Shown here one piece after another: positions 3,152-23,731 of a stretch of 30,932 bases of DNA. This DNA is from a virus, in IMG/VR virus record IMGVR_UViG_3300046313_000283, positions 1 through 30,932 of that record; one strand, 5' to 3'. Numbering within the stretch: position 1 is the stretch's first letter; every line of letters starts with the position of its first letter. The notes beneath the pieces were generated by a model that made no database searches, was not told the DNA's origin, and saw nothing but the letters and a program-made list of their open reading frames with translations. Both the position numbers and the translations under genes were made by a program.

Positions 3152-3649
3152 TCACAGCCCCGCCATGCGTTTCATGTCGGAAAGCGCCGTGTCATTATCA
3201 CAGTAAAAATTTGGCAGGCGTTCAGTTTTCCAACGCTCAGGATCAGACGCCAAATAGATAGCCATAGCAGCTCCTGGCGTTCCGATTTTACCCTCAAGGT
3301 CAAGGCCTTCTTGACCAGATACAGCCAACACCCACCCGGCGCGGCATTGCGCCGTCCCGCAAGTATGCCCGCTGCCCTCTGCAAATGTTGACATATCAAA
3401 CAATTCAGGATTAGCGGTTGCTGCCGCATAAACCTTTTCGTGGATATTTTCAACGATAGGGGCCCCGCCCAGATCGGCCCCGCGCAGATCGGCCACGCCC
3501 AGATCGGCCCCGTGCAGATCGGCCTTATTTTTAAGTCCCCATACGACTGCTAGGCCGATTTTCACATATTTACTCACGCCATCCGTACAGTCGATTTCTG
3601 CGGTGAACTGAATTTTTCCGGTGAAGCGGTTAAGAATGTCAAATTTCAT
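3152..3649 (-). CDS. Pentapeptide-repeat protein with CRAGW-type C-terminal domain (165 aa)
   Basis: This is the first gene of the leftward operon. Residues 1-40 form a small beta-rich head (MKFDILNRFTGKIQF...). Residues 42-63 hold about four and a half A-D-L-x-x pentapeptide repeats, a motif family that folds as a right-handed beta-helix. Residues 66-163 form a separate domain with ENIH, LFDM, HTCGTAQCRAGWV, A.AIYLAS and ND.AL.DMKR.A. The same domain, with the same order of conserved residues, ends the Cys-triplet-repeat protein at 10714-11547, so the two are paralogous in that half. I chose the second of two adjacent ATGs because AAGGAGG sits five to six bases before it; a longer frame to 3721 has no such site. 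What the domain does is unknown. Confidence 0.9.
   Translation of the reverse strand: MKFDILNRFTGKIQFTAEIDCTDGVSKYVKIGLAVVWGLKNKADLHGADLGVADLRGADLGGAPIVENIHEKVYAAATANPELFDMSTFAEGSGHTCGTAQCRAGWVLAVSGQEGLDLEGKIGTPGAAMAIYLASDPERWKTERLPNFYCDNDTALSDMKRMAGL
3461..3526 (-). repeat. 15-bp tandem repeats coding for pentapeptides
   Basis: Four near-identical 15-bp units (core GATCGGCC on the plus strand) encode KADLH, GADLG, VADLR and GADLG. The short, well-conserved array suggests recent unit gain or loss by slippage. Confidence 0.8.
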
Positions 3650-3769: not shown

Positions 3770-3982
3770 ATGAAAAAAGAAAACCACCCACTTATCGCCT
3801 ACCTGAAAGCCGAAAAGCTGTCAGTGGTATGGCTGGCAAAGCAGCTTGGGATTTACCGGGTTACGCTTTCTAATAGCATCGCTAACGGCGTGTCACTTGA
3901 GCGCCGTCAAGCAATCGAAACCGCCACGCGAGGGGGCTTTCCGGTCTCTGCGTGGCCTGATCATGGCGAGGATAAGGCATGA
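3770..3982 (+). CDS. Cro/CI-like helix-turn-helix regulator (70 aa)
   Basis: This small DNA-binding protein sits directly at the divergent promoter, which is the classic place for a phage repressor or Cro. Residues about 17-41 (SVVWLAKQLGIYRVTLSNSI) read as a helix-turn-helix: an Ala-Lys first helix, a Gly turn, then a recognition helix. The tail is short, with no dimerisation or cleavage (LexA-like) domain, so it is closer to Cro or YdaS than to CI. The start at ATG 3770 has no Shine-Dalgarno sequence, in keeping with a leaderless mRNA from the -10 box nine bases upstream. Frames reaching back to 3710 would pass through the promoter. Whether it controls lysogeny or only the early genes cannot be told; no integrase is seen nearby. 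Confidence 0.85.
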   Translation: MKKENHPLIAYLKAEKLSVVWLAKQLGIYRVTLSNSIANGVSLERRQAIETATRGGFPVSAWPDHGEDKA

Positions 3983-7415: not shown

Positions 7416-9551
7416 GTGGTGCCGCAAGAATCGCTATCCGCAAAACCAGAGGCTATTCGCGCTGATCTGGTATACATGACCCGCCGATGGTCTGAACTCA
7501 CTGAAAGGTGCATGTTTGAAATCCGCGCCTTCAAAGAAGGTAGCCAAACACAAACTGCCAAATTCGCCCCAGATTGGATTGACGGCCCGGATGGCGCTGT
7601 GCAGTGGATCACGGCCCTAAACGCCATGGGCTACAATATCTATGCAGTCAGAAACCCAATTCGGCAAAAATGCAGTGGGTCCGCATCTGACACCGATATT
7701 GTCGCAGCATTCTTTCTATGGGCTGATTGCGATGACCCCGCCGCCGCTGGCAACGTCCTGCGCTTTGACGGCCCGAAATGGTCGGCTTCAGTTGTAACCG
7801 GAACAACCCCAAGCACCCGCGCCCATACCTATTGGGAATTAGCAGAGCCTTGCACCGATATGGCCGCTTGGCGGGCAATGCAGGCCACTATTGCGGCACA
7901 CTTCGCATCCGATAGCACCGTGATCAACCCAAGTCGCATTATGCGCGTAGGCGGGACCATAAGCTATCCAAGCACCCAAAAGCAGGGGCGTGGATATGCG
8001 TCTGAATTGACGGAACTGCGCACCGAATATGCAGACCCACGCGCCCCTGTTAGCTTAGAGCAAATGGCCCGCGTGTTCGGAGACCGGGAACCCGCCCGCA
8101 AAGCCTCGACCGTGGCCGCGCCGCGCATTGGCGGGGGCTTACAGATTGATACCGGGTCCAATGTAACGCCTCTTGATCGGGATCGCTTGGCAATTCAGGC
8201 AATGAGTGGGATGGACTGGCACAACGCCGTAATTCGGCTTGTGGCGTCATATGTCGGAAAGGGACTGTCGGACGATGAAATCCACGCCCTGACGCAGCCA
8301 CTAACACTCTCTGGGTATACAGGGCAAGACACGGCCCAAGAGGTGCAGACGGCCATAGACGGCGCGCGGCGCAAGGGCTGGACGCCAGAAACGCAATATG
8401 CCAACCCGGCCGCATTGCAAGCGCCCACTGTGGCGATAGCAACAGACTTTGACGCCCCCGCCACAGCGCCACAAACAGCCCGCGCCGTCGATCTTGAATG
8501 GTTTGATGATGCGACCCCCGCACTTGGCGGGTCATATATCATCAAGGGCGTTCTAGACGCGGGGTCAATGTCTGTGGTTTACGGGCCGTCAAACAGCGGC
8601 AAAACATTCTTTGCCTTTGACGTGGCCTATCACATAGCAATCGGATCAACATGGCGTGGCATCCGGGTAAAGCAATCCGCCGTCCTATATCTCGCCGCAG
8701 AGGGCGGGCGGGGCGCGCTGAACCGCATGTTTGCACTTAGGCAGGAACATGGCATCTGTGATGTGCCTATGGCTCTTAAACGCGCTGGCCTCGACCTACT
8801 GCATGATCAAGCTGACCTGCAACACATCACAGACCTAGCAGCCGAGGTTATGCGTCTAAAACCCGGCCTACCGCTTGTGATCGTGATTGATACCCTGTCG
8901 CGTATCATGGCAGGCGGTGACGAAAACAGCGCCGCCGATATGACCGCCCTTATCCGCAATATCGACGCCGTGCGAGAGGCGACAGGGGCGCATATCATGC
9001 TGGTCCACCACACGGGCAAGGACACAGCGAGAGGCGCGCGAGGACACAGCAGCTTGCGCGCCGCCACAGATACCGAGATCGAAGTGAGCAACGAGAATGG
9101 CGCGCGGGCAGCTATCGTCACTAAACAGCGTGATCACCAAGGCGGCGAAACCTTCGCTTTCGCGTTGCGCACCGTAACCCTAGGCACCGATCAAGACGGC
9201 GATGAAGTCACTTCTTGCGTGGTGGAAGTAGAGGATAGCGACGCCTTTAAAGCGGCCAAGAAGGCCCAAAAGGGGCGTGGTAAAAACCAAACCATTATCA
9301 TGGAATCGTTTGATCAGATGATTGCAGAGGGGCTTGGAAAGGGCAATCCGGGGGGCGTTGGAATGCCGGAACCGGGGCAGTTCTGGGCAGTCGATGCAAA
9401 CGATTTAAGGGCCATTTCTCAGGGAAAAATGATCGGAGACAACGCCGCCAAACTTTTTCGCACCGCATGGGAAGGTTTGACCGGAAATGGCGGCCTTTTT
9501 GTGTCGGGGAATAACCTTGCTTGGCGAATTGACCGTAGAAAATCAAATTGA
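7416..9551 (+). CDS. Primase-helicase fusion protein (711 aa)
   Basis: This is probably the key replication enzyme: it would lay RNA primers and unwind DNA at the fork. The N-terminal part (about 1-240) resembles the archaeo-eukaryotic type primases of plasmids and phages, with an acidic DxDD patch in FFLWADCDDPAA (99-110) and the later NPSRIMRVGGTISYP stretch. The C-terminal part (about 360-610) is a RepA-like (AAA_25) hexameric helicase with Walker A GPSNSGKT (390-397), Walker B VIVIDTLSR (487-495), LVHHTGKD (529-536) and GARGHSSLRAATD. The start is GTG 7416 or the next codon, also GTG. No DNA polymerase is seen in this window, so the phage either uses the host enzyme or encodes one beyond the edges. 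Confidence 0.92.
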   Translation: MVPQESLSAKPEAIRADLVYMTRRWSELTERCMFEIRAFKEGSQTQTAKFAPDWIDGPDGAVQWITALNAMGYNIYAVRNPIRQKCSGSASDTDIVAAFFLWADCDDPAAAGNVLRFDGPKWSASVVTGTTPSTRAHTYWELAEPCTDMAAWRAMQATIAAHFASDSTVINPSRIMRVGGTISYPSTQKQGRGYASELTELRTEYADPRAPVSLEQMARVFGDREPARKASTVAAPRIGGGLQIDTGSNVTPLDRDRLAIQAMSGMDWHNAVIRLVASYVGKGLSDDEIHALTQPLTLSGYTGQDTAQEVQTAIDGARRKGWTPETQYANPAALQAPTVAIATDFDAPATAPQTARAVDLEWFDDATPALGGSYIIKGVLDAGSMSVVYGPSNSGKTFFAFDVAYHIAIGSTWRGIRVKQSAVLYLAAEGGRGALNRMFALRQEHGICDVPMALKRAGLDLLHDQADLQHITDLAAEVMRLKPGLPLVIVIDTLSRIMAGGDENSAADMTALIRNIDAVREATGAHIMLVHHTGKDTARGARGHSSLRAATDTEIEVSNENGARAAIVTKQRDHQGGETFAFALRTVTLGTDQDGDEVTSCVVEVEDSDAFKAAKKAQKGRGKNQTIIMESFDQMIAEGLGKGNPGGVGMPEPGQFWAVDANDLRAISQGKMIGDNAAKLFRTAWEGLTGNGGLFVSGNNLAWRIDRRKSN

Positions 9552-10713: not shown

Positions 10714-11547
10714 ATGATGGATAATAAAGAAATCACGTGGGTAACTGATGCAAACGGGAATAAGTGTTCCGACGCATATTTCGGAACAATCGAAAAAGCA
10801 CAGGCGGCGCTTGATTCTTTAGTCGATTGCTGGAATTGTGTAAACTGCTCCCGCTGCTCCGACTGCTCCCGCTGCTCTGGCTGCTCTGGCTGCTACGACT
10901 GCTCCTACTGCTCTGACTGCTCTGGCTGCTCCTGCTGCTCCCGCTGCTCCGACTGCTCCCGCTGCTACGACTGCTCTGGCTGCTACGACTGCTCCTACTG
11001 CTCTGGCTGCTCTGGCTGCTCTGGCTGCTCCGACTGCTCTGGCTGCTCCGACTGCTCTGGCTGCTCTGGCTGCTCCGACTGCTCTGGCTGCTCTGGCTGC
11101 TCCGACTGCTCTGGCTGCTCTGGCTGCTCCGACTGCTCTGGCTGCTCCTACTGCTCTGGCTGCTCTGGCTGCTCTGGCTGCTCCGACTGCTCTGGCTGCT
11201 CCCGCTGCTCCGACTGCTCCGACGAGGTTGGCGATTTTGTTGCGCCAATTGTGCCTAAAATTGAAAATATCCATTCGGTTGTTTTGGGCGCTGTTAGCAA
11301 TGCGGGTGCGCTTGATATGGCTTCATGGCACACGTGCAACACCACCCATTGCCGCGCTGGGTGGGTTGTGCATTTAGCTGGAGATGCGGGGTATACACTT
11401 GAGCGGTTTCACGACACGGCGCTTGCTGCGCAGTTGATCTACAAAGCCAGCGGATACCAAATCAGCCCATGCCGTTTTTACGAAAGCAACGATGTTGCAA
11501 TGGCAGACATGCAGCGCCTTGCGGCGGAAAGCGCGGCGTCAGAATGA
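10714..11547 (+). CDS. Cys-triplet-repeat protein with CRAGW-type C-terminal domain (277 aa)
   Basis: Three parts are visible. Residues 1-38 form a small head (ITWVTDANGNKCSD...). Residues 39-170 are 44 uninterrupted triplets C-x-x, almost all Cys-Ser-[Gly/Asp/Arg/Tyr], giving 45 cysteines and a run of overlapping CxxC pairs. Residues 171-277 form a domain with ENIH, ALDM, HTCNTTHCRAGWVV, LIYKAS and ND.AMADMQRLA, the same as in the pentapeptide-repeat protein at 3152-3649. The regular Cys spacing could bind many metal ions, form stacked disulfides or make a narrow solenoid; none of this is shown. No signal peptide is present, so it would stay in the reducing cytoplasm, favouring metal binding or free thiols. 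GAGGAG lies seven bases before ATG 10714; a second ATG follows at once. It has its own promoter and leader. Confidence 0.9.
   Translation: MMDNKEITWVTDANGNKCSDAYFGTIEKAQAALDSLVDCWNCVNCSRCSDCSRCSGCSGCYDCSYCSDCSGCSCCSRCSDCSRCYDCSGCYDCSYCSGCSGCSGCSDCSGCSDCSGCSGCSDCSGCSGCSDCSGCSGCSDCSGCSYCSGCSGCSGCSDCSGCSRCSDCSDEVGDFVAPIVPKIENIHSVVLGAVSNAGALDMASWHTCNTTHCRAGWVVHLAGDAGYTLERFHDTALAAQLIYKASGYQISPCRFYESNDVAMADMQRLAAESAASE
10828..11223 (+). repeat. 9-bp tandem repeat array coding for Cys triplets
   Basis: Forty-four consecutive 9-bp units, mostly TGCTCTGGC and TGCTCCGAC, are read as Cys-Ser-Gly and Cys-Ser-Asp. A 27-bp higher-order unit (Gly, Gly, Asp) repeats about three times near 11059-11139. The Cys codon is TGC and the third codon ends in C throughout, so variation is limited to few positions. 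The array should change length easily, always in frame by three residues. Confidence 0.92.
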
Positions 11548-11804
11548 CCACCCCCATCGACTACACCCCCCGCGCTGAGGCATACGCCGCCACGTGTCCA
11601 AGCCCCGCCGTTGCCTATGCGGTGATCAGGGGGCTAATGCTGGATTATCCGATGTCAGAGGCGGCTAAAGCTGCCGATGTTTCCATCCATGTCGCGCGCG
11701 ATTATTACGTGAAAATGACCCGCGCCATGTCCGACAACGGGAAATTCACCGAGGCCGCGCAGGAAGCACTCCGGGCGGCGTTAAAGCGGAGGGTCGAGGC
11801 GTGA
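11544..11804 (+). CDS. Small HTH-like protein (86 aa)
   Basis: Residues about 37-58 (MSEAAKAADVSIHVARDYYV) read as a helix-turn-helix of the kind that recognises DNA, framed by helical Ala-rich sequence. A short basic tail (KRRVEA) ends the protein. ATG 11544 overlaps the stop of the Cys-repeat gene, so it is probably translated from the same mRNA; an upstream ATG at 11469 would lie inside that gene. It may act as a regulator of this block. Confidence 0.82.
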   Translation: MTTPIDYTPRAEAYAATCPSPAVAYAVIRGLMLDYPMSEAAKAADVSIHVARDYYVKMTRAMSDNGKFTEAAQEALRAALKRRVEA

Positions 11805-12427
11805 GTTTGCAAAATACGTCATCGGCGGTTATGCAGCAAAACAGAGAGCCGCATGGGTCGCTTGGAGACTTCCCAACGCCACCGTGGGCAACACGGGCAA
11901 TGCTCCAACGCCTAAACCCATTGCTGAAGTCAACCTGCCGTGAGCCTGCTGCGAATCGTGGGCATATGGTCAAGCCATTGCGCGCATTTTTCGGCAATGT
12001 CGAGGCGTCTGATATTCACGACTATGGCGCTGGCTTTCCGGTTCAGGATTATCTGTTCGGCCCTAACCCTGAGACTGTCGATTGGACAATCACAAACCCG
12101 CCCTTTCAACTGGCAGAGCAATTCATCGTGCGGGCATTGGAGACAAGCCGCGAGGGAGTTGCGGTTATTGTTCGCAGTGCCTTCCTTGAGGGGGTAGGCC
12201 GTTATCGCGGGCTGTTCAGCGTAACCCCGCCCACCCTTGTGTTGCAATTTTCGGAGCGAGTTGTAATGCACAAAGGCAAGCTATCAGCGAAAGGCAGCAC
12301 GGCAACCGCTTATTGCTGGATCATTTGGAAGCACTTGCACAATGGCCCAACCCATATGGGGTGGATTCCACCGTGTCGGAAACAGCTTGAAATGCCAGAT
12401 GATTATCTGACAGGAATCACAGCATGA
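11801..12427 (+). CDS. N6-adenine DNA methyltransferase-like protein (208 aa)
   Basis: The catalytic motif of amino-methyltransferases is present as TNPPF (98-102), and the AdoMet-binding motif as EPAANRGHM (48-56), a form of the usual EPACG.G. The order (AdoMet site, then NPPF) is that of gamma or Dam-like classes. At 208 residues it is small and lacks an obvious target-recognition domain, and no restriction enzyme is near, so it is a solitary phage methylase, perhaps protecting phage DNA or tuning promoters. A start at GTG 11801 overlaps the previous stop as GTGA. A pseudo-enzyme cannot be excluded because the AdoMet motif has Ala-Asn where Cys-Gly is common. Confidence 0.88.
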   Translation: MSLQNTSSAVMQQNREPHGSLGDFPTPPWATRAMLQRLNPLLKSTCREPAANRGHMVKPLRAFFGNVEASDIHDYGAGFPVQDYLFGPNPETVDWTITNPPFQLAEQFIVRALETSREGVAVIVRSAFLEGVGRYRGLFSVTPPTLVLQFSERVVMHKGKLSAKGSTATAYCWIIWKHLHNGPTHMGWIPPCRKQLEMPDDYLTGITA

Positions 12428-12837
12428 AACCCACCCCTATGACAGCCTACCGAACCGCCACCAGTGCCCGCGTTCTGCCGCCCGTTTCCGCGCCAAAGCC
12501 TGCCCTCTATGCGGGGCGGGTGGCGGAACTCATGGCGCTGGGCCTAACCGCAGTGCAGGCCATGCACCGGATAGAGCGTGGCGATAAGCATCGCGCCCTC
12601 GCCCCGAATAACCAAGCGGGAAATCAAGGCTCACCACGCAAGCCCCGGCCAATGTCCAATCAGCGGCAAGTTGCATTGGCATCGCTCACGGACGAATTCA
12701 CCGACGCAATCCCCGGCATTGCGGAAAAGCTGGAAATCAGCAACACCGCCGCCCGGTCGCTATTGCGGGCAATGGTTTCCGATGAAAAGGTCGAGTGCAG
12801 GAAAACCAACGGGCGGATTATGTGGAGGCGGTTGTGA
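12424..12837 (+). CDS. Hypothetical protein with C-terminal winged-helix-like region (137 aa)
   Basis: Residues 30-52 (AGRVAELMALGLTAVQAMHRI) are helical. A basic, Pro-rich linker follows (about 55-80). Residues 83-137 look like a winged helix: ALASLTDEFTDAIPGIAEKL, then TAARSLLRAM and a beta hairpin ending CRKTNGRIMWRRL. This arrangement suggests DNA binding. The ATG overlaps the methylase stop, so the two may work together, for example by guiding the small methylase to its sites; this is inference from context only. Confidence 0.85.
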   Translation: MKPTPMTAYRTATSARVLPPVSAPKPALYAGRVAELMALGLTAVQAMHRIERGDKHRALAPNNQAGNQGSPRKPRPMSNQRQVALASLTDEFTDAIPGIAEKLEISNTAARSLLRAMVSDEKVECRKTNGRIMWRRL

Positions 12838-13052
12838 ATATCGAACTTGAAATCAAAGGCGCAACCGACAAAGAGGTAGCCGATTTTCTTCGCACCCAGT
12901 TGACGAAATATGAGCCGCGCAAGCCATATAACCCTTGGCTTGCATTTGTATGGGGATTATCGCTCATGGCGATGCTGAATATCGGAGACGTGCATATTTG
13001 CGTTGGGGAATGTGATGGAAGTGGGTTCAAGCTATCGGATGCGCTCAAATGA
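12834..13052 (+). CDS. Putative single-span membrane protein (72 aa)
   Basis: The gene starts with GTG 12834, overlapping the previous TGA. The protein has a soluble acidic N-terminal part (NIELEIKGATDKEVADFL). A hydrophobic stretch around residues 46-61 (NPWLAFVWGLSLMAMLNIG) could cross the membrane, and a short tail with two cysteines follows. Function is unknown. The stop overlaps the next start as ATGA. Confidence 0.75.
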   Translation: MNIELEIKGATDKEVADFLRTQLTKYEPRKPYNPWLAFVWGLSLMAMLNIGDVHICVGECDGSGFKLSDALK

Positions 13053-13297
13053 ACCCAGTTTTCCGTGATGGCCGATATTATCCATCCCAAACGGCTTTTG
13101 CTCGGGCTATGGATGTCACCCCATCGGCTGTTGGAATGGCGCTATACCGCGGCACTCTCGACAGTGTTGGGGTTAAGCGTGGCGGCAAGCTGAAGCCCGT
13201 GAATGTCAATGGGGTGGATTATGTCAGCAAAAAGCAGGCGATGGCAGAGCTAGGCATTCATTGGGCGGCGTTGGAAAGACAGATTAAAGCAAGATGA
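13049..13297 (+). CDS. Small HTH DNA-binding protein (82 aa)
   Basis: Residues about 12-33 (PSQTAFARAMDVTPSAVGMAL) fit a helix-turn-helix of the phage regulator kind: Ala-rich first helix, Val-Thr-Pro-Ser turn, recognition helix. A second helical region (KKQAMAELGIHWAALERQIK) may be another HTH or a dimerisation helix, as in 'two-box' small phage DNA-binding proteins. Coupled by ATGA overlaps on both sides. It probably regulates transcription in this block. Confidence 0.83.
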   Translation: MNPVFRDGRYYPSQTAFARAMDVTPSAVGMALYRGTLDSVGVKRGGKLKPVNVNGVDYVSKKQAMAELGIHWAALERQIKAR

Positions 13298-13476
13298 CCC
13301 CAGCCGAGGTTCGCAACGCTTCCATGTGCCAAGGCAAGCGGGCGCTGACATACTGCGAGGCCGTGGCGATCCCAAAGCGGTCAACACCATACGGCAAGAA
13401 CCGCGCGAAATACCGCTGCCCCGTCTGTCGCGCTTGGCATTTGGGGCAGCATCCGAAAAAGATCAAGCGGGCGTAA
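13294..13476 (+). CDS. Small zinc-ribbon-like protein (60 aa)
   Basis: Cysteine spacing CQGKRALTYCEA ... YRCPVCRAWHLGQH suggests a zinc-binding fold with CPVC as one half and a Cys or His pair as the other. Such small proteins are common among phage early and middle genes and may bind nucleic acid or proteins. The basic composition (KKIKRA at the end) supports nucleic-acid contact. The start ATG overlaps the previous stop. The next gene is served by its own promoter. Confidence 0.82.
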   Translation: MTPAEVRNASMCQGKRALTYCEAVAIPKRSTPYGKNRAKYRCPVCRAWHLGQHPKKIKRA

Positions 13477-13484
13477 AATATGCG

Positions 13485-13513
13485 TTGACGTGTTACGCGT
13501 AAGGCGGTATATG
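13485..13513 (+). promoter_or_regulatory. Promoter with palindrome in its spacer
   Basis: TTGACG (13485-13490), a 17-bp spacer and TATATG (13508-13513) make a good sigma-70-type promoter. The spacer holds the perfect palindrome TTACGCGTAA (13493-13502), a plausible operator. The layout parallels the promoter at 10586. Confidence 0.6.
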
Positions 13514-13546
13514 TTGTGTATGGAAACGCAAACGAGGATTACGAAA

Positions 13547-13720
13547 ATGACCAAGACTCAAGCAATCTCGAAAATGATCCTCGACGCCTATGGCGATAAC
13601 ATTGGGTCGCCAAACAAAGAAAAGCTGAAATCGGCGATTGATGCGGTTCTCTTCCCCGGCGCATATGACAGCCTTGTGGATAGCCTGTATGATGATCTTC
13701 GGGCAAAGGCGGCCGCATGA
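13547..13720 (+). CDS. Small hypothetical protein (57 aa)
   Basis: No family is recognised. The protein begins MTKTQAISKMILDAYGDNI and is helical and acidic towards the end. ATG 13547 is preceded by GAGGA eight to nine bases upstream. An in-frame ATG at 13520 coincides with the predicted transcription start of the promoter at 13485 and would give a leaderless, nine-residue-longer product. Its stop overlaps the next start (ATGA). Confidence 0.75.
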   Translation: MTKTQAISKMILDAYGDNIGSPNKEKLKSAIDAVLFPGAYDSLVDSLYDDLRAKAAA

Positions 13721-13869
13721 CCAACGCCGCCAACCAAGCAGCCCACCGCGCCCGCCAAATAGCGGACGGGCGCGTCCTAATCCGGGCATGGGTTCCCGGC
13801 GCAATCGCATCGGCTATCAAGGCCACAATCGCCGCTATGGTGGCAGAGCATGAGGGAGAGAATGAATGA
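13717..13869 (+). CDS. Small protein, possible ribbon-helix-helix (50 aa)
   Basis: This short gene has ATGA overlaps on both sides. Its product begins MTNAANQAAHRARQIADGRV. The middle, a short beta-like GRVLIRAWV followed by helical AIASAIKATIAAMVA, resembles the ribbon-helix-helix fold of small phage and plasmid repressors, in which the strand contacts DNA as a dimer. The match is one of pattern only. Confidence 0.72.
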   Translation: MTNAANQAAHRARQIADGRVLIRAWVPGAIASAIKATIAAMVAEHEGENE

Positions 13870-14096
13870 CAACCAATAACGGCGGGCCAGCTTTTCCGGC
13901 ACGGCCAACAGAGCATCTTCTTGGGGGCGGATCGATCACTACGCATCACGGCATGAGTTTGCGCGATTACTTCGCCGCGCAGTCGCTGAAGTGGGCCGGG
14001 CATGGCGATTGGTTTCACCAAAATCCAAAAGATGCGGCGACGCGGGCCTATCAAATGGCCGACGCCATGATTGCCGCCCGCGAGGCAACAGAATGA
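13866..14096 (+). CDS. Conserved phage hypothetical protein (76 aa)
   Basis: The layout NGGPAFPARP ... GMSLRDYFAAQSL ... AYQMADAMIAARE is found in many small phage proteins of diverse hosts; their role is unknown. It is of the usual length. The start overlaps the previous stop by four bases, and an ATG also overlaps its own stop, although the frame behind that ATG is short and doubtful. Confidence 0.85.
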   Translation: MTTNNGGPAFPARPTEHLLGGGSITTHHGMSLRDYFAAQSLKWAGHGDWFHQNPKDAATRAYQMADAMIAAREATE

Positions 14097-14114
14097 CACG
14101 CGAAACATACCTCG

Positions 14115-14351
14115 ATGGTGACAATCGACCCGCACCACAAGTCAAAAACTGTCACCCTCGCCGCGCTCCCCGGATTGCCGACGCAACAGCTTGACCGCCA
14201 CGAGACCGCGCCCCGGCTGTTGCCAGTGCGAGGGCTGCGCATCAAGCCAAAGCTATCCCATGCAGCGCAAGAGCGGGCATTTGATCGGGCGGCCGATGCA
14301 CTCGCGGCGAAAATCGCGGGGCTTGGGGTATTGGCGCAGGTGGTGTTGTGA
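14115..14351 (+). CDS. Hypothetical protein (78 aa)
   Basis: No family is recognised. The protein contains a basic middle (LLPVRGLRIKPKLSH) and an Ala-rich helical end (AFDRAADALAAKIAGLGVL). The start is uncertain: ATG 14115 or GTG 14118, neither with a clear ribosome site. A competing frame, 14093-14194 (33 residues), begins with an ATGA overlap on the previous gene but is short. I prefer the longer frame because its stop abuts the next gene. Confidence 0.58.
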   Translation: MVTIDPHHKSKTVTLAALPGLPTQQLDRHETAPRLLPVRGLRIKPKLSHAAQERAFDRAADALAAKIAGLGVLAQVVL

Positions 14352-14368
14352 TGGGAAAGGATATGGGA

Positions 14369-14866
14369 ATGAAAATTGAGAATGGAAAGCGCTACAATAC
14401 GCGCTTCGGTGAAGTAGATGGGCCTATGAATGTGCCGCCGATTGGCAAGTGGCGAGGAAACGTTATCGCTGATTGGGATGATCACGGCTGGTGCGAAGGT
14501 GGCAAGTTCCGAACGGATGGCAAAACTGACAGCCGCGACCTGATTTCAGAATATATCGAACCAGCAACCGCCCCCGACATGTCGCAAAACCGCGTGCCGT
14601 GGGGGCTGTTGACCGATGTGGAGCAGGCGGCGCTTCATGCGTGGGTCTCGCTAGGCATGCCTATTGAGGTTTTCCGGCATCGCGGCTTTTTGCCAATGCA
14701 AATAGCGCAAACTATTTCACCTCATCGGGAAGATATATACCGCACCGTATCCCCGCCCGTGATCACCGAGGAACGCCACGACATCACCACAGCATCCGGG
14801 CAGCTTGTCACCGTCACCATGACATTGCACGACGGCAAGCCTATCAGCGGAACGGTGGCGGTCTAG
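14369..14866 (+). CDS. Hypothetical protein (165 aa)
   Basis: The N-terminal part (MKIENGKRYNTRFGEVDGP) follows a pattern seen in many short phage proteins, where 'GKRY.TR.G...GP' begins a small beta-rich domain of unknown role. The C-terminal part has a helical WGLLTDVEQAALHAW segment and beta-like ending (LVTVTMTLHDGKPISGTVAV). ATG 14369 has AAGGA seven bases upstream; ATG 14351, which overlaps the previous stop, is the alternative and adds six residues. It is the last gene before the late promoter. Confidence 0.82.
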   Translation: MKIENGKRYNTRFGEVDGPMNVPPIGKWRGNVIADWDDHGWCEGGKFRTDGKTDSRDLISEYIEPATAPDMSQNRVPWGLLTDVEQAALHAWVSLGMPIEVFRHRGFLPMQIAQTISPHREDIYRTVSPPVITEERHDITTASGQLVTVTMTLHDGKPISGTVAV

Positions 14867-15065
14867 GCGAAGCCATGCAAGCTATGAGTGCAGCGCGCTG
14901 GCCCTGTCGTATACCGCGCAAACCATGGCACCAAGGGCGCGGAATAACGCCAGTATCTCGCCGCGTGACCTTGGACAAACCCGGCAGCCCGTGCTACCAT
15001 GTCCAACGTGATCAAATCATAAGGACGGCCAACAATCCGCAAGGAACTGGACCGATGGTAACGAT
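14867..15065. promoter_or_regulatory. Late-operon promoter region
   Basis: No convincing gene lies in this 199-base gap. TTGGAC (14971-14976), an 18-bp spacer and TACCAT (14995-15000) form a reasonable sigma-70-type promoter in front of the packaging and virion genes. A leader of about 60 bases follows, with AAGGA at 15041-15045 ahead of a four-codon frame. Confidence 0.5.
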
Positions 15066-15069
15066 ATGA
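15055..15069 (+). other. Four-codon leader frame overlapping the small terminase start
   Basis: ATG GTA ACG ATA TGA reads MVTI and its stop overlaps the ATG of the small terminase gene (ATGA). AAGGA lies nine bases before it, while the terminase ATG itself lacks a well-placed site. Ribosomes may therefore reach the terminase gene by re-initiation. Confidence 0.35.
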
Positions 15070-15353
15070 GCGAGGAGCCTAAAAAAGGCACCAATACGGG
15101 CAATCGGGGGATGGGCAGGCCCAAGGGCGCGCCAAACAAGATCACCGCTGACATCCGCCGCGCGATCCTTGAGGCAGCAGAGGCAGCGGGTGGCGAAGGC
15201 GGAACTGTCGGGTATCTGACGCTTCAGGCAATCGAAAACCCCGGCGCATTTATGGGCCTTCTGGGTAAGATTTTGCCTAGCGTTGTCGTGGGTGATCCTG
15301 AAAACCCACTGAACGTTATTACTCGCATTGAACTTGTTGCGGGCGGCAAGTGA
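15066..15353 (+). CDS. terS: Terminase small subunit-like protein (95 aa)
   Basis: It would recognise the phage DNA and hand it to the large subunit for packaging. The N-terminal GRPKGAPNKITADIRRAILEA is a basic, helix-forming DNA-binding type found in small terminases of this compact kind. The middle (TVGYLTLQAIENPGAFMGLLGKILP) is an oligomerisation-like helix pair, and the VITRIELV end is typical. The call rests on this pattern and on the position immediately before the large subunit, with a GTGA overlap. Confidence 0.78.
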   Translation: MSEEPKKGTNTGNRGMGRPKGAPNKITADIRRAILEAAEAAGGEGGTVGYLTLQAIENPGAFMGLLGKILPSVVVGDPENPLNVITRIELVAGGK

Positions 15354-16639
15354 CAACCGTTCGATTGGAGTTGCCAGAAAAGCTTGTTCCACTGTTTGAG
15401 GGGGAGGCTGACGTTCGCGCGGCTGACGGGGGGCGGGGTTCCGCGAAAACCCGCACGTTTGCAAAAATGACAGCCGTGCGGGCGATGATGTGGGACAAGG
15501 CAGGGCGGTCGGGCCAAATCCTATGCGGTCGCCAGTTTATGAACTCGCTGTCAGATTCATCGCTTGAGGAAGTCAAGGCGGCTATCAGGTCAGAGCCTTG
15601 GCTTATGGCCGCTTTTGATATTGGCGAGAAATACATCAAAACGAAAAGTGGGCGGGTTTACTACACATTTACAGGCCTTGACCGGAACATTGCCAGCGTC
15701 AAATCTAAGGCGCGCATTTTGCTTTGCTGGGTCGATGAGGCGGAACCAGTAACCGATGAGGCTTGGACAACGCTAATCCCGACGCTGCGGGAAGAAGACA
15801 GCGAACTTTGGGTAACGTGGAATTCCAAGCGGAAAAATGCGCCAGTCGAAAAGCGGTTCAAGGATTCAACGGACCCGCGCGTTAAATATGTCCGCATCAA
15901 TTGGCGAGACAACCCGTGGTTTCCTGATGTTCTTGAGCGTGTCCGCCAGAGGGATTTGCGCGATAGGCCGGACCAATACCCGCATATCTGGGAAGGCGAT
16001 TATGTGAGTGTAGTTGAGGGGGCATACTTTGCAGCAGCACTAACGTTGGCCCGCGCGGAGGGCCGCATTGGCCGGGTTGCCGCTGATCCACTCATGACAA
16101 AACGCGCGATCTGGGATATTGGCGGCACCGGGGCTAAAGCTGACGCCTGCGCAATCTGGATTGTTCAGTATGTCGGGAGGGAACTGCGTTTCCTCGATTA
16201 CTACGAGGCGCAAGGCCAGCCGCTTGCCACGCACGTTGCATGGTTGCAGGCTAATGGCTACGGCGCGGCTCTGTGTGTCCTGCCCCATGATGGGGCAACC
16301 AATGACCGGGTGCATGATGTAAGCTATGAGAGCGCGCTGCGGGCCGCTGGCTTTGAAGTGCAGGTTGTTGCCAACCAAGGGGCAGGGGCGGCAATGCGCC
16401 GGGTAGAGGCAGCGCGACGCCTATTCCCAAGCATGTGGTTTAATGATAAGTGTTCCGCAGGACTTGACGCAATAGGCTGGTATCATGAAAAGCGGGATGC
16501 AGAGCGCGGTATCGGCCTTGGCCCAGATCATGACTGGTCAAGCCATGGGGCCGATGCTTTCGGGCTTGCTGCTGTTGCCTATGAGTTGCCAATCGTTGGC
16601 AAGACAGAACCGAAATTCGAACGGCGCAAGGTGGTCTAA
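15350..16639 (+). CDS. terL: Terminase large subunit (429 aa)
   Basis: This is the ATP-driven motor and nuclease that packs DNA into the procapsid through the portal. The N-terminal ATPase shows Walker A GGRGSAKT (27-34) and Walker B ILLCWVDEAE (123-132) with the catalytic Glu beside the Asp. The C-terminal RNase-H-like nuclease shows a first Asp in IWDIGGTGAKAD (D256), a PHDG stretch (312-315) and HGADAFG (399-405) with a late acidic residue. Length and order fit the Terminase_3/6 families. GTG 15350 overlaps the small subunit's stop, and the stop overlaps the portal ATG. Confidence 0.95.
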   Translation: MTTVRLELPEKLVPLFEGEADVRAADGGRGSAKTRTFAKMTAVRAMMWDKAGRSGQILCGRQFMNSLSDSSLEEVKAAIRSEPWLMAAFDIGEKYIKTKSGRVYYTFTGLDRNIASVKSKARILLCWVDEAEPVTDEAWTTLIPTLREEDSELWVTWNSKRKNAPVEKRFKDSTDPRVKYVRINWRDNPWFPDVLERVRQRDLRDRPDQYPHIWEGDYVSVVEGAYFAAALTLARAEGRIGRVAADPLMTKRAIWDIGGTGAKADACAIWIVQYVGRELRFLDYYEAQGQPLATHVAWLQANGYGAALCVLPHDGATNDRVHDVSYESALRAAGFEVQVVANQGAGAAMRRVEAARRLFPSMWFNDKCSAGLDAIGWYHEKRDAERGIGLGPDHDWSSHGADAFGLAAVAYELPIVGKTEPKFERRKVV

Positions 16640-18882
16640 TGGCTGATATCAAGATCATTGCGAATTTGGTGGGTGAGGCCGAGCGCCACGCGGAAAGCCA
16701 GTCAAAAGACCGCATCCGAGCGACGGAATACTATCAAGGCACTATGGCCGACACGCCTAGCGACAAGGGCAAGTCCAGCATGGTGACGCGCGATGTTCGG
16801 GCGAATATTAAGCGGGTGCTCCCTTCCATTGTTCGCACGATCTTGAATGCCGACGAGGTTGTCGAATTCATGCCCGTGGGTGAGGGCGACGAGGAAGCCG
16901 CTAAACAGGCATCCGATTACATCAACTACGTTGTTATCCCTGAATCCGATGGCCGCAACGCGATCTATGACGCTATTCATGACGCGCTTTTGCACCGAAA
17001 TGGCGTGATCAAATGGTGGTTTGAGGAAAAGAAAACTGCCGCATTTTCGTCACACTCTGGCTTGACCGAGGACGCGGTTTTGCAACTGATCGGTGAAGAT
17101 GGCGTTGAGGTTGTGGAGCGATCCGAGCGGCAAGAAACGGTTGAAGAGGGCGGGCAACAGCAGGTTGTCACCGTCTATGACTGCAAGATCAAGCGGGCAA
17201 TCACAAGCCGCAAAACCCGCATTGCTGCGGTTCCGCGCGAACGGTTCCTGATCCACCCCGACGCCGTGACGCTAGACGATAGCATTCTGACAGGCGAAAA
17301 GACGACCATGCGCAAGAGCGATCTTGTCGCAATGGGCTACGACTTCGAGCTTATCCGCGATCTGCCAACGGCTGACGAGGACGACACAGAACGCGACATT
17401 CGCCGCGATAATATCACGCGCGAGGCGGAAGAAACCGGGCCGAATTCCGAGGTAGATTACTACGACCTTTTTGTTCGAATTGACATGGACGGCGACGGCA
17501 TTGCCGAATTGCACCATATGTGCTTTGCAGGCGGGCTGACAGAGCGGCACCTGCTTTCCGACGAGGAATGCGATGAGGTGCAATTCACCGATATCTGCGT
17601 GATGCGCCAACCGCACCAATGGGAAGCGGTGTCGCTCGCTGACGACCTGATGGATTTGCAGCGGGTTAAAACCGTGCTGCTGCGTCAAACACTCGATAAC
17701 ATCTATTGGCAAAACAACCCACAGCCGACGGTGCAAGAGGGCGTTGTATCCAATATGGACGCGGTGATGAACCCTGAATTCGGCCTGCCTATCCGTGTTC
17801 GGCAAGGGGTGGACGTTCGGGCGGCGCTTGGGTTTAATCAGGTTCCATTCGTGGCATCCAATTCCTTCGCCATGATGGAATACATGGACAAGGAAGCGCA
17901 GGACCGCACGGGCGTAAGTGACGCATCGGCTGGCCTTGCGCCTGATGCTCTACAAAACATGACGGCCAAGGCGTCAGCCATGATTGAACAGGCTGGCATC
18001 GGGCAGACTGAACTGATGGTTAAGACGGCGGCGGATGGGCTTAAGCGGCTGTTCCGTGGGCTTTTGCGCATGATTATTCGGCATCAAGACATCCCGCGCA
18101 CGGTTCGGCTTCGCAACAAGTGGGTGCAGGTTGACCCGCGCGACTGGAATTCTGAAATGGATTGCACGGTTAACACGGGCCTAGGCGCGGGCACCCGTGA
18201 GCGCGACATGATGATGATGCAGCAAATCATGGCAATGCAGGAAAAGATGATTATGGCGTTTGGGCCTGATAACCCATTTGTGAAGCCTGATCAGGTTTAC
18301 AACGCGACGGTGCGGATGGTCGAGGCGGCGGGCGTGAAAAACCCAAGCATGTTCTTCACCGATCCGAACCCCGAAGAAGTGCAGGCCAAGCTGGACGCGG
18401 CCAAGAACGCGCCCGATCCAAACGCGCAGAAAATGCAAGCGACCATGCAGATTGAGCAAGCGAAAATGCAGGCCAATATGCAGGTCGAGCAGGCCAAGCT
18501 GCAATCCACCATGCAGCTTGAACAGGCGAAAATGCAGGCCAGCACGCAGAAAGAGGCGGCGCAAATGGAAGCCGATCTTGCGGTTAAGCAGGCGGAGCGC
18601 GAAACGCAGCTTATGCTAGCTTCGCAGGAATTGGCGTTTAAGCGCGAGGAACTGGCGGCAAATCAGCGGCTTGAATTCACCAAGCTTGGCATGTCCCAAA
18701 GCGAGGACGGCTCGCCCGTTGACGCGCGCGGCAATGAGATGATGCAGGTTTTGCAGCAGGTTTCCGCGATGGTCGGGGCGGTGAGTGATCAACTGCAAGG
18801 CGCGCAACGGCCCAAGCGTATCGTGCGCGATGGCAACGGCGATATAATCGGACTTGAACCCTATGACGCGGCGGTGAACTGA
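16639..18882 (+). CDS. Portal protein, P22-like (747 aa)
   Basis: Twelve copies should form the ring through which DNA enters and leaves the head. The size is close to the P22 portal (about 725 residues), and the course of the sequence matches: an N-terminal helical region with RATEYYQGTM, a wing-like middle with the RERFLIHPDA and DIDGDGIAELH-type segments, a DNA-tunnel region around LLRQTLDNIYWQNNP and a long C-terminal barrel. The barrel (about 595-690) is very rich in Gln, Met and Ala and contains 11-residue repeats. It lies between large terminase and structural genes, with one-base TAATG and TGATG junctions. Confidence 0.93.
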   Translation: MADIKIIANLVGEAERHAESQSKDRIRATEYYQGTMADTPSDKGKSSMVTRDVRANIKRVLPSIVRTILNADEVVEFMPVGEGDEEAAKQASDYINYVVIPESDGRNAIYDAIHDALLHRNGVIKWWFEEKKTAAFSSHSGLTEDAVLQLIGEDGVEVVERSERQETVEEGGQQQVVTVYDCKIKRAITSRKTRIAAVPRERFLIHPDAVTLDDSILTGEKTTMRKSDLVAMGYDFELIRDLPTADEDDTERDIRRDNITREAEETGPNSEVDYYDLFVRIDMDGDGIAELHHMCFAGGLTERHLLSDEECDEVQFTDICVMRQPHQWEAVSLADDLMDLQRVKTVLLRQTLDNIYWQNNPQPTVQEGVVSNMDAVMNPEFGLPIRVRQGVDVRAALGFNQVPFVASNSFAMMEYMDKEAQDRTGVSDASAGLAPDALQNMTAKASAMIEQAGIGQTELMVKTAADGLKRLFRGLLRMIIRHQDIPRTVRLRNKWVQVDPRDWNSEMDCTVNTGLGAGTRERDMMMMQQIMAMQEKMIMAFGPDNPFVKPDQVYNATVRMVEAAGVKNPSMFFTDPNPEEVQAKLDAAKNAPDPNAQKMQATMQIEQAKMQANMQVEQAKLQSTMQLEQAKMQASTQKEAAQMEADLAVKQAERETQLMLASQELAFKREELAANQRLEFTKLGMSQSEDGSPVDARGNEMMQVLQQVSAMVGAVSDQLQGAQRPKRIVRDGNGDIIGLEPYDAAVN
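18433..18564 (+). repeat. 33-bp repeats coding for 11-residue units in the portal barrel
   Basis: Four consecutive units encode MQATMQIEQAK, MQANMQVEQAK, LQSTMQLEQAK and MQASTQKEAAQ (residues 599-642); a fifth, more diverged unit follows. Eleven-residue periodicity is typical of hendecad coiled coils with a slight right-handed twist. Confidence 0.85.
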
Positions 18883-19301
18883 TGGCATCCTTGATTTTCA
18901 ACAGCGCGCTTCGTGACGAGGCAATCGGCGGGGTGGACTACGACACCGACACATTCAAGGTTATGCTGACAACATCGGCGTATACCGAAAACAAAGACAC
19001 CCACACCAAGCGGTCGGACATCACAAGCGAAGTGGTCGGCGCGGGCTATACGGCTGGCGGCAACACTGTGACGGTGACGGTTGGCGCAGTGGATACGGCA
19101 AACGACCGAGTTGATATTTCACTCGGCGGCACCACTTGGGCGGCATCGACGATCACGGCGCGCAAGGCGGTCTATTACAAATCGCGGGGCGGCGCGGCTT
19201 CGGCTGATGAAATCATTGCGGTGATTGACTTCGGCGCTGATGTTTCAACCACTGTCGGCACGTTCACGCTGACGGCCTCGACGCTAAGGAAGCAGAACTA
19301 A
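18882..19301 (+). CDS. Structural protein, head or tail decoration-like (139 aa)
   Basis: The sequence (MASLIFNSALRDEAIGGVDYDTDTFKVML...) is of a kind widely found just after the portal or near tail genes of podoviruses and siphoviruses, where it is annotated only as structural. Features include the DTDTFKVMLTTSAY opening, RSDITSEVVG, AVYYKSRGGAAS and a C-terminal FTLTAST. It is almost entirely beta-rich with many Thr and Ser. It is probably a virion component; whether it sits on the capsid or the tail cannot be decided. Start overlaps the portal stop (TGATG). Confidence 0.85.
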   Translation: MASLIFNSALRDEAIGGVDYDTDTFKVMLTTSAYTENKDTHTKRSDITSEVVGAGYTAGGNTVTVTVGAVDTANDRVDISLGGTTWAASTITARKAVYYKSRGGAASADEIIAVIDFGADVSTTVGTFTLTASTLRKQN

Positions 19302-20488
19302 TGCTGATCCTATCCCAAACGTCAGTCATTCGCATTGTCACATCGGCAGCGGCTCAAATTGAGGTACACGCCTCTGTTGTTGATATTGCCGGAACGGTTG
19401 TTTCTGTGCCCGATCCCGTCAACACGCCACACATCACGACAGCGGCAACAACGACGGTTGTCCCATCCCCCGGCGCTGGGGTGAAGCGCAACGTCAAGCA
19501 CCTCAACATTACCAATGACCATGCAAGCGCGTCTTGTTCGGTTACTGTAGAGCATTTTGACGGGACAACCGCGATTGAACTCATGGCGTTCACCTTGTTG
19601 CCCGGTGAAAACATGATCTTCAACGAGGAAGGTCGATGGGCGCACCGTGACGCGCAGGGGGCAGAATATCCCCCGGCGGGCCTTGGCGCTTACAATGGTT
19701 TTTCAGTTGGCCTCATGAAATCCACAACCGCCCCCGATGCGGCTGGCTATTGGTATTGCACGTCAAAGGATGGCGGCTTTCCGGGCGCATGGAACCCCGG
19801 CACACCCGGCCTAAATGGCCGCAACACCGACGGAACGGTATCGCCTGACTTCGGGTGTATCCCGATTAAGAACCCCGCAGCCGGGGCTAATTTTATCACC
19901 GAACTGCAAATGGCGGCATCAGTTAACCACTCGCACCTTTTGTTTGATGTGCTTTGGGTGAATAGTGGTCTTGTGGTGACAACGCTTACCGCGCAGGCGA
20001 TCACACAGCCGACGCTCCCCGCTCGCGACATTAACGGCACCACAAACGGCGAGGGCTGCAATATCGCCATGCTGTTTACGGCGGCTGCGACCAATGCGGC
20101 GGTGATCAGCAACACTACTGTTTCCTATACCAATTCGGACGGGGTTGCTGGTCGCACGGCAACGCTATCTGCAATTGTCGGTTCGCAAATCCCTGCAACA
20201 CCTGTTAACGGAACGCTGATTTGGTTTAACCTAGCGGCGGGGGATCGTGGCGTTCGTTCGATCCAGTCTGTGACGCTTGGCACCTCATTGGCGACGGGGT
20301 CTGTTAGCATGATGGTGACGCGCGATGTTGCGACAATCGGCACAACCATTGTTAACGTGACCGCGCAAAAGGTTGTCGGGTCGCCGGGGATCAGAATTTA
20401 TAACGGCACGGCCTTGCTGCATTGCGTCCTTGCCAGCGCGCCAACTGCAACCTTTGTTGCTGGTGAAATATCGGTAGCGGAGCGGTAA
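19301..20488 (+). CDS. Beta-rich virion protein (395 aa)
   Basis: No named family is recognised. The protein is rich in Thr, Val, Ala and Gly with alternating hydrophobic residues throughout, as in phage tail, spike or decoration proteins. The N-terminal third (about 45-125) looks like a beta sandwich (VKRNVKHLNITNDHASASCS...). The middle contains Trp- and Gly-rich loops (GYWYCTSKDGGFPGAW), and the end has long beta strands. It overlaps its neighbours by one base. The position between portal and scaffold argues for a head-associated component, but a receptor-binding or decoration role is possible. Confidence 0.85.
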   Translation: MLILSQTSVIRIVTSAAAQIEVHASVVDIAGTVVSVPDPVNTPHITTAATTTVVPSPGAGVKRNVKHLNITNDHASASCSVTVEHFDGTTAIELMAFTLLPGENMIFNEEGRWAHRDAQGAEYPPAGLGAYNGFSVGLMKSTTAPDAAGYWYCTSKDGGFPGAWNPGTPGLNGRNTDGTVSPDFGCIPIKNPAAGANFITELQMAASVNHSHLLFDVLWVNSGLVVTTLTAQAITQPTLPARDINGTTNGEGCNIAMLFTAAATNAAVISNTTVSYTNSDGVAGRTATLSAIVGSQIPATPVNGTLIWFNLAAGDRGVRSIQSVTLGTSLATGSVSMMVTRDVATIGTTIVNVTAQKVVGSPGIRIYNGTALLHCVLASAPTATFVAGEISVAER

Positions 20489-21330
20489 TGTCAGGCGGGG
20501 TTTTCAGTGCTGATATTGCCCCGGAAGGCTGGTTTGACAAGCTGTCAACTGATGAAGGATGGTTCAGCTATGAATTCATATCTCAAGGCTCTGGGGCGGT
20601 AGACGCAACAGCCCCCGGCGCAAGTCTGGGGTATGCGCTGTCACTACTTCCCGGCGCTGCATCTGGCGGCGGCGCTATTGACGCGACAGCCGACGGCGCA
20701 ACCATATCCTATGCGGAAAGCATAATATCCGGCGCGGCAACGGCGTCTTCGCAGGCCAGCGGCGCAACCGTTGGCATCGGCTATTCGATCATTGCAGGGG
20801 CCGCGCAGGCGGCGTCCCAAGCGCAGGGGCAGGCGTTGCCGCTGGCCTACTCGCTATTGCCGGGGGCCGCGTCTGGCGAGGCCAATGCCACGGCAAGCGG
20901 AGTGACGGTATCCTATGCCTATGCGCTGCTTGCGGGCATTGCATCTGGGGCCGCGTCGGCAACGGGCGGTCGCGGCGATGACGCTTTTAGGTCAGCCGGG
21001 GCGGCGCGCAAATTCTGGGCCGACAAAGCCGATGAATGGCTAGAGCAAAGCATCGACCGGATCAAAGCCGCCGCGCCAAAGTCAGAGGATGCGCGCGAAG
21101 CTGTTGCCGATGACATTCTATCCGAGGCCAGCGATAGGTTGATGGATTGGCCCGCGTTTGCACCACAGATTGACGCGGTGCAGCGTATCGCCCAGCGGCT
21201 TGCGGTTCCGACTGTGGACTATTCGGAAATTGCGCGCTATATTGCCGAACAAATGCAGGCCGTGGAAGCCGCCCGTCGTGTAATGCGGCGCAAGCGCGAT
21301 CTCGAGGCCCTTTTGCTGCTGGTGGATTAA
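20488..21330 (+). CDS. Repeat-containing virion protein (280 aa)
   Basis: The N terminus (1-35) carries two similar EGWF segments. Residues 40-157 consist of five repeats of 22-26 residues with the pattern A.G.[TS][ILV].Y..[LI][IL].GAA[ST], suggesting a small repeated beta unit. Residues 165-280 are helical and charged (WADKADEWLEQSIDRIKAA...; RRVMRRKRDLEALLLLVD), probably a coiled coil or binding arm. Function is unknown, but the late-operon context indicates a virion part. The repeat region is much less charged than its surroundings. Confidence 0.85.
   Translation: MSGGVFSADIAPEGWFDKLSTDEGWFSYEFISQGSGAVDATAPGASLGYALSLLPGAASGGGAIDATADGATISYAESIISGAATASSQASGATVGIGYSIIAGAAQAASQAQGQALPLAYSLLPGAASGEANATASGVTVSYAYALLAGIASGAASATGGRGDDAFRSAGAARKFWADKADEWLEQSIDRIKAAAPKSEDAREAVADDILSEASDRLMDWPAFAPQIDAVQRIAQRLAVPTVDYSEIARYIAEQMQAVEAARRVMRRKRDLEALLLLVD
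20605..20958 (+). repeat. Five imperfect repeats of about 22-26 residues
   Basis: Units begin at residues 40, 66, 90, 112 and 134 of the encoded protein. Each carries a Tyr followed by aliphatic residues and a GAAS/GAAT/GIAS-type end, for example YALSLLPGAAS, YSLLPGAAS and YAYALLAGIAS. The DNA is diverged, so the array is older than the Cys-triplet array. Confidence 0.75.
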
Positions 21331-21558: not shown

Positions 21559-21589
21559 TGCAGCACCGCCCCAAGCCTAAAGGCGCACT

Positions 21590-22495: not shown

Positions 22496-22519
22496 CCCCC
22501 CATAAAAGGACGTAGCATA

Positions 22520-23512: not shown

Positions 23513-23519
23513 TGAAACC

Positions 23520-23541: not shown

Positions 23542-23561
23542 CTCATCTAATGGAGGCCCCC

Positions 23562-23726: not shown

Positions 23727-23731
23727 TTTCT

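What the first reader, a model, noticed from the sequence alone, without database searches (positions are those of the whole stretch)
3152..3649. Same C-terminal domain behind two different repeat solenoids (pentapeptide and Cys-triplet)
Seen: residues 66-163 here and 171-277 of the protein at 10714 share ENIH, the DM pair, HTC..T..CRAGWV, A..IY.AS and ND.A..DM.R.A in the same order. One carries pentapeptide repeats in front and the other Cys triplets. Inference: a modular family in which a fixed effector or docking domain is paired with exchangeable short-period repeats, used twice by one phage in opposite operons.
Basis: seen in the sequence. Interest (0 to 1): 0.75.

Follow-up and report, generated by a model that had tools for sequence, protein, structure and literature searches.

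The report
Phage repeat proteins sharing one domain
Two early proteins of this phage end in the same small helical domain although one carries five-residue repeats and the other forty-four cysteine triplets in front of it; hundreds of relatives show that the domain recurs behind at least four kinds of short repeat, probably as part of a little-studied toolkit that phages use on their hosts.

Summary
Residues 66-163 of protein A (3152-3649, -) and 183-272 of protein B (10714-11547, +) are homologous (BLOSUM62 score 150; 2000 shuffles: mean 25, maximum 52) and hit the same uncharacterised family, PHROG 31265. A 59-row profile folds confidently as an all-helical domain without a match in PDB or Pfam. 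It is a repeat-fused branch of a large stand-alone family (CGTxACxAGWA, PHROG 889).

In 156 distinct relatives every gene that could be judged has short repeats in front: pentapeptide, Cys triplet, YdcK-type hexapeptide or leucine-rich-like. Three corrections. (1) "Exchangeable" is too strong: the Cys-array domains form one clade and A/B are not recent duplicates (AU p = 0.026). (2) "Solenoid" is not shown: A has about four pentapeptides, and AF2 leaves B's array as low-confidence coil. (3) A's N-cap is more promiscuous than the domain: at least five different C-terminal domains follow it.

Arrays differ in length between proteins with identical domains, yet Cys is kept in 1565 of 1566 triplets. 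Genes lie in early regions; the cognate P22-type gene sits among anti-restriction and anti-RecBCD genes. An early host-interaction or counter-defence role is likely but unproven.

The parts
3152..3649 (-). gene A, 165 aa: N-cap + about 4 pentapeptides + shared C-terminal domain
   Evidence: SD AAGGAGG upstream of the start
3524..3649 (-). A, N-terminal cap (residues 1-42, 'NRFTGKIQFTAEIDC...GLAVVWGLKNK')
   Evidence: conserved in about 50 viral contigs; followed by at least five different C-terminal domains elsewhere
3458..3523 (-). A, short pentapeptide array (residues 43-64)
   Evidence: TRF period 15, 4.3 copies; Pfam Pentapeptide 16.7 bits, below cut-off
3161..3454 (-). A, shared C-terminal domain (residues 66-163)
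   Evidence: AF2 all-helical, pLDDT 86.5, pTM 0.79
10714..11547 (+). gene B, 277 aa: N-cap + 44 Cys triplets + linker + shared C-terminal domain
10714..10827 (+). B, N-terminal cap (residues 1-38, 'WVTDANGNKCSDAYFGTIEKAQAALDSLVD')
   Evidence: conserved cap of Cys-array proteins; folds in AF2 with moderate confidence
10828..11223 (+). B, array of 44 Cys-x-x triplets (residues 39-170), mostly CS[GDRY]
   Evidence: TRF 10844-11223, periods 18/27; unit counts; AF2 coil, pLDDT about 30
11260..11529 (+). B, shared C-terminal domain (residues 183-272)
3770..3982 (+). divergent small HTH (Cro-like) gene next to A, suggesting that A is the first gene of the leftward early operon
   Evidence: weak PHROG hits to DNA-binding / regulator families (0.0012 and 0.042)
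7416..9551 (+). AAA_25 ATPase, marking the early replication/recombination region in which B lies
   Evidence: Pfam 7.9e-37

Best explanation
A and B are two distant members of a modular family of phage early proteins built as N-cap + short tandem repeat array + small C-terminal domain. SHOWN: the C-terminal domain is homologous in both. It is a roughly 90-residue domain, all-helical in a confident prediction, and a repeat-fused branch of the stand-alone CGTxACxAGWA family (PHROG 889). Relatives carry it behind pentapeptide, Cys-triplet, YdcK-type hexapeptide and leucine-rich-like repeats. Array length differs between proteins with identical domains while the repeat chemistry is strictly kept; the repeat kind itself changes rarely. 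INFERRED: the protein is made early in infection and stays in the host cytoplasm. The constant C-domain binds or acts on a conserved partner. The array is a length-adjustable polar arm or decoy surface (for pentapeptides a DNA-like rod; for Cys triplets a flexible or metal-structured strand) whose unit number can be changed quickly by replication slippage or unequal exchange. The most likely net role is counter-defence or take-over of a host nucleic-acid enzyme.
For: Homology and fold. Parent family without repeats; hhalign probability 97.8, E 1e-12. Repeat kinds in front of the domain. Cap re-use. Two other C-domains also occur behind both pentapeptide and hexapeptide arrays. Same domain, different array length: 13 against 20, 4 against 9, 22 against 24 at 100% domain identity, 20 against 28 at 97%; phages L and ST64T, >99.9% identical, differ by one pentapeptide unit in an early-left gene (PMC8022706). 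Selection on the array: Cys in 1565 of 1566 triplets while all six Ser codons occur and the third residue is almost only D/G/R/Y/N/S/H. Early position: near recombinase-, exonuclease-, helicase- and methylase-like genes (my reading of clustered neighbour sequences); YqaJ genes beside the Bordetella copy. The cognate pentapeptide gene of P22-like ST104 lies between ral and 17/c3/kil/erf/abc1/abc2. Pentapeptide proteins can mimic DNA (PMC10886550).
Against: No member with this domain has a known function or assay; Pfam, NCBIfam, PDB, PADLOC and fold searches are empty. The ST104 gene has a different C-terminal domain, so its context is only an analogy. McbG and QnrB, the pentapeptide proteins tested against BREX, did not inhibit it (PMC7261183). 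A's own array is too short to be a DNA-like rod. The Cys array is not predicted to fold. Early position fits many other roles.
Confidence: 0.42

Rival explanations
1. B is a metal- or thiol-handling protein: the CxxCxxC array binds many Zn, Cu or Fe-S centres (metallothionein-like), and the H/C-bearing C-domain is part of that chemistry.
For: CxxCxxC spacing is that of metal-cluster sites (own knowledge); Cys kept in 1565 of 1566 triplets; the C-domain has an invariant Cys pair plus His; AF2 gives no fold for the metal-free array.
Against: The same domain works behind pentapeptide, hexapeptide and leucine-rich-like repeats that have no Cys ladder. One His of the motif is replaced in A (HTCGTAQC) and the spacing of the other varies. 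No metal-resistance neighbours were noticed among the clustered neighbours.
Confidence: 0.17
2. The arrays are near-neutral minisatellite expansions (linkers) and only the C-domain matters.
For: Arrays change length while the domain stays identical; AF2 coil in B; the domain exists without repeats in the parent family.
Against: In 1566 triplets position 1 is non-Cys once, although synonymous Ser codons are mixed even inside single arrays; position 3 avoids hydrophobics. No intact repeat-free gene was found in this branch. Caps specific to each array are conserved.
Confidence: 0.13
3. Superinfection exclusion or another lysogenic host-modifying (moron) function rather than counter-defence.
For: Found in bacterial genomes and a Bordetella prophage-like plasmid; the P22-type cognate gene is near sieB and 17.
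Against: Genes lie in early recombination/replication regions and, in the window, in both early operons; no signal peptide or membrane segment is evident in A or B.
Confidence: 0.15
4. Structural or tail-associated repeat protein (collagen- or fibre-like).
For: Weak PHROG hits of B's array to tail fibre / collagen-like families (0.18-0.28).
Against: Those hits are low-complexity level; the genes sit far from the terminase-portal-tail block (15350 onward) and next to regulator and replication genes.
Confidence: 0.03

Closest known systems
PHROG 31265 (phage family, function unknown)
   Same: Covers the shared domain in A, B and all 38 tested members
   Different: Annotated only as unknown; the link to Cys triplets, hexapeptides and leucine-rich-like repeats is not stated for it
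PHROG 889 / stand-alone CGTxACxAGWA proteins
   Same: Same helix - MxxW - CxTxxCxAGW helix - helix layout; hhalign probability 97.8; all 38 domain members hit it weakly
   Different: Stand-alone proteins, usually 110-190 aa, without repeats; the upstream His and the TTH motif are not general
DUF5758 (PF19062) and P22-type pentapeptide proteins (ST104 orf19)
   Same: Same N-cap (DUF5758 group) or same layout of repeat array plus small C-terminal domain in an early phage gene
   Different: Different C-terminal domains
Pentapeptide DNA mimics MfpA / Qnr
   Same: AxLxx repeats
   Different: Those have long solenoids and dimerise through C-terminal helices; A has about four repeats and a different C-domain
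YdcK beta-solenoid (PF18836)
   Same: One viral relative carries this repeat before the domain (L092, 1.6e-13)
   Different: Repeat only; no relation of the C-domain

Membership tests
PHROG 31265 / PHROG 889 superfamily | profile match over the domain | tested here: met
   6.6e-52 and 1.5e-25 for 31265; weak for 889 in all members; profile-profile 97.8%
PHROG 31265 / PHROG 889 superfamily | CxTxxCxAGW motif with both Cys | tested here: met
   invariant H31, C33, T35, C38, G41, W42, G48 in 59 rows; C34, G35, T36, A38, C39, A41, G42, W43 in the stand-alone set, which was collected with that motif
Pentapeptide repeat protein (PF00805) | A(N/D)LXX array above the gathering score, forming a right-handed quadrilateral helix | tested here: not met
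   A scores 16.7, below 20.2, with about four units; longer arrays exist in relatives
Beta-solenoid repeat protein (B's Cys array) | regular solenoid fold | tested here: inconclusive
   AF2 gives coil, pLDDT about 30, although AF2 tends to over-predict solenoids; shallow alignment, no metal in the model
Metallothionein-like metal binder | stoichiometric metal binding through Cys | not testable with these tools
   needs purified protein
DUF5758 protein | PF19062 C-terminal domain | tested here: not met
   no hit in A or B; met in L010 and L020, which share A's N-cap
Known anti-phage defence protein | PADLOC model match | tested here: not met
Anti-defence / DNA-mimic inhibitor | inhibition of a host nuclease, restriction enzyme or gyrase | not testable with these tools
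   context only

The most novel reading that the evidence does not exclude
Phages maintain a combinatorial set of early proteins in which several N-caps, at least four repeat chemistries (pentapeptide, Cys triplet, YdcK hexapeptide, leucine-rich-like) and at least five small, often Cys-bearing C-terminal domains (CRAGW, DUF5758, AGCRxF, IGCxxH, GDCACLVGT) are recombined over evolution. The array would be a fast-mutating tunable arm and the C-domain the specificity module of a counter-defence repertoire, with Cys-triplet arrays a previously undescribed repeat fold or metal-structured strand.
Probability: 0.22. Interest if true: 0.8.

Novelty: new variant of a known kind. Interest (0 to 1): 0.56.

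Why it matters
It turns a chance-looking similarity into a defined, widespread phage domain (405 relatives in one viral scan, 33 loci in bacterial genomes) that Pfam and NCBIfam do not describe. It links four repeat classes usually studied apart. Because cap, array and C-domain combine separately, nature has already made the swap experiments: the same domain on different arrays and the same cap on different domains can be compared directly to ask what short repeats do in phage early proteins. The perfectly kept Cys triplets (6-49 per protein) are a concrete target for structural work.

Tried and rejected
Chance similarity between low-complexity proteins: rejected, the aligned parts are non-repetitive and score far above shuffles. 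Recent duplication of A or B inside this phage: rejected, A and B lie in different clades and holding them together costs 51 log units, AU p = 0.026. Assignment by solved structure or fold: nothing; the best viral model is a 74-residue protein at 42% identity over the aligned part, probably of this same family. AF2 of whole B as evidence for a Cys solenoid: it predicted coil instead. Ten apparently repeat-free genes: two cut at contig ends with no repeat left to judge, five with short, truncated or frameshifted Cys arrays, three with very short pentapeptide stretches. Array difference between the window and the 99.94% identical contig IMGVR_UViG_3300046314_000160: not used, that contig ends inside the array. 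Literature for PHROG 31265, 889 or 30739: none. A profile scan with the AGCRxF domain failed for lack of conserved stretches, and a genome scan with it gave 2 of 385 genomes. My first script for the DANGN-cap loci used a wrong pattern and was repeated.

Full report
WHAT WAS CLAIMED AND WHAT IS THERE. Protein A (3152-3649, minus, 165 aa) and protein B (10714-11547, plus, 277 aa) are real ORFs with ribosome-binding sites. The claimed motifs are present in order. Residues 66-163 of A and 183-272 of B align with score 150; 2000 shuffles give mean 25.2, sd 4.6, maximum 52. Both hit PHROG 31265 (6.6e-52 and 1.5e-25). The record (30,932 bases, all of it the window) holds exactly these two copies. A has about four pentapeptides; B has 44 Cys triplets. 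The phage resembles Sulfitobacter phages pCB2047-A/C in its portal gene (about 73%).

WHAT THE DOMAIN IS. No Pfam or NCBIfam family and no PDB chain matches it. A 59-row alignment has invariant H31, C33, T35, C38, G41, W42 and G48. AF2 gives an all-helical domain with confident helices (mean pLDDT 86.5, pTM 0.79; the loop before the Cys pair is uncertain) and no solved relative by fold. All 38 members tested hit PHROG 889 weakly. A DNA pattern for CGTxACxAGWA found 73 viral stretches; the proteins are stand-alone, usually 110-190 aa, without repeats in the parts printed, and those scanned hit PHROG 889. Profile-profile comparison gives probability 97.8, E 1e-12 over 86 columns. The shared domain is therefore a repeat-fused branch of a large unnamed family.

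WHAT STANDS IN FRONT OF IT. Viral scans (405 relatives in the last, best 80 kept) and a genome scan (33 loci, mostly Pseudomonadota, also Bacteroidota and others) gave 156 distinct proteins: 81 with pentapeptides, 61 with Cys triplets, 3 leucine-rich-like, 1 hexapeptide, 10 unclassified by script. The hexapeptide case is a Pfam YdcK beta-solenoid (L092, 1.6e-13). The leucine-rich-like cases are L130, L094 and L216; they match no Pfam model, so that name is mine. Of the ten unclassified, two are cut at contig ends with no repeat left to judge, five are short, truncated or frameshifted Cys arrays (L082 read directly), and three have very short pentapeptide stretches. No intact repeat-free gene of this branch was seen.

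HOW OFTEN THE REPEAT KIND CHANGED. On a tree of 144 domains the repeat label needs 6 changes against about 50 for shuffled labels (few columns, many open forks). In a 60-row tree the Cys group is one clade (99*), pentapeptide bearers are not one clade (AU p = 0.005), and A and B held as sisters are rejected (p = 0.026). So repeat kinds were swapped a few times, long ago, and then inherited. Of 70 records or genomes searched, four have more than one copy: the window mixes pentapeptide and Cys, one other record mixes Cys and leucine-rich-like, one has only pentapeptide copies, and a Xanthomonas genome has two copies of the same pentapeptide version.

THE OTHER MODULES. A's N-cap (NRWT..VQFTAEIDC) plus pentapeptides is followed by this domain in only 6 of 38 complete proteins. 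The rest end in DUF5758 (Pfam 7e-20 and 3e-20), an AGCRxF domain, an IGCxxH domain, a GDCACLVGT domain or a short tail. B's N-cap (DANGN) with a Cys array almost always carries this domain: 43 proteins by script plus most of the 19 'other', by inspection. The AGCRxF domain also stands behind hexapeptides (L451), and the IGCxxH domain behind hexapeptides in Aeromonas phage Aer_P220 and a Vibrio phage. The mix-and-match is thus a property of a wider class, not of this domain alone.

THE ARRAYS. Proteins with identical C-domains differ in array length: 13 and 20, 4 and 9, 22 and 24 units; a 97% pair has 20 and 28. Metagenome assembly can collapse arrays, but the published phages L and ST64T (>99.9% identical) differ by one pentapeptide unit in an early-left gene (PMC8022706). 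In 1566 Cys triplets position 1 is not Cys once; Ser (about 87% of position 2) uses all six codons; position 3 is D, G, R, Y, N, S or H with almost no hydrophobics. That indicates selection on the protein, although homogenisation of units may contribute. Pentapeptide arrays use D/N/V/Y, R/S and G/D at positions 2, 4 and 5, the outward-facing positions (PMC10886550), a similar polar set. AF2 leaves B's array as coil at pLDDT about 30. Since AF2 tends to over-predict solenoids for perfect repeats (PMC11795689), this is a caution against calling it a solenoid; a metal-bound fold is not excluded.

CONTEXT AND FUNCTION. A is next to a divergent small HTH gene (weak hits) and B lies in the region of an AAA_25 ATPase. 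Around relatives, recurring neighbours look like single-strand annealing proteins, YqaJ-type exonucleases, helicases, methylases and repressors (my reading of the sequences, not a family scan). The Bordetella plasmid copy is beside YqaJ genes, excisionase and integrase. The P22-like ST104 pentapeptide protein with the IGCxxH domain lies between ral and 17, c3, kil, erf, abc1 and abc2. An early cytoplasmic host-interaction protein, most likely counter-defence, is the best reading; the partner is unknown and this step is inference. The pentapeptide proteins tested in a BREX assay (McbG, QnrB) did not inhibit it (PMC7261183).

VERDICT. Observation confirmed; interpretation right in outline, too strong on 'exchangeable' and 'solenoid'. 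New variant of a known kind.

Noticed in passing
L008-L053: One N-cap plus pentapeptide array is followed by at least five unrelated C-terminal domains (CRAGW, DUF5758, AGCRxF, IGCxxH, GDCACLVGT), most of which have no Pfam family; each shows a recurring Cys motif.
   Followed up: partly
L293-L365: The stand-alone CGTxACxAGWA family (PHROG 889) has no Pfam model in the members scanned, although exact motif matches occur in 73 viral stretches.
   Followed up: partly
L461 (Vibrio phage 1.139.B): DNA encoding hexapeptide repeats in front of the IGCxxH domain is annotated as CRISPR spacers in the public record, probably wrongly.
   Followed up: no
Aeromonas phage Aer_P220 (L459); Acinetobacter phage MD-2021a: Repeat proteins with the IGCxxH domain carry doubtful names (MFS transporter, Ser/Thr protein kinase B); the Aer_P220 gene call also stops short of the domain.
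   Followed up: no
window 11086-30932: IMGVR_UViG_3300046314_000160 is 99.94% identical over 19.8 kb and its contig ends inside the Cys array, so the array probably broke the assembly.
   Followed up: yes
window 18429-18573: 33-bp tandem repeat (4.4 copies) inside the C-terminal part of the portal gene, encoding a Q/A/K-rich, probably coiled stretch.
   Followed up: no
L124, L125 (Xanthomonas sp. NCPPB 1128): Two copies of the pentapeptide version with the same sequence lie about 37 kb apart on one contig, perhaps two related prophages.
   Followed up: no
L114, L115, L127, L129, L134: Cys arrays have a second, unrelated N-cap (IF..Y..F..R.DK..NGVS..FA..NP.W), also seen in Bacteroidota genomes.
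   Followed up: partly
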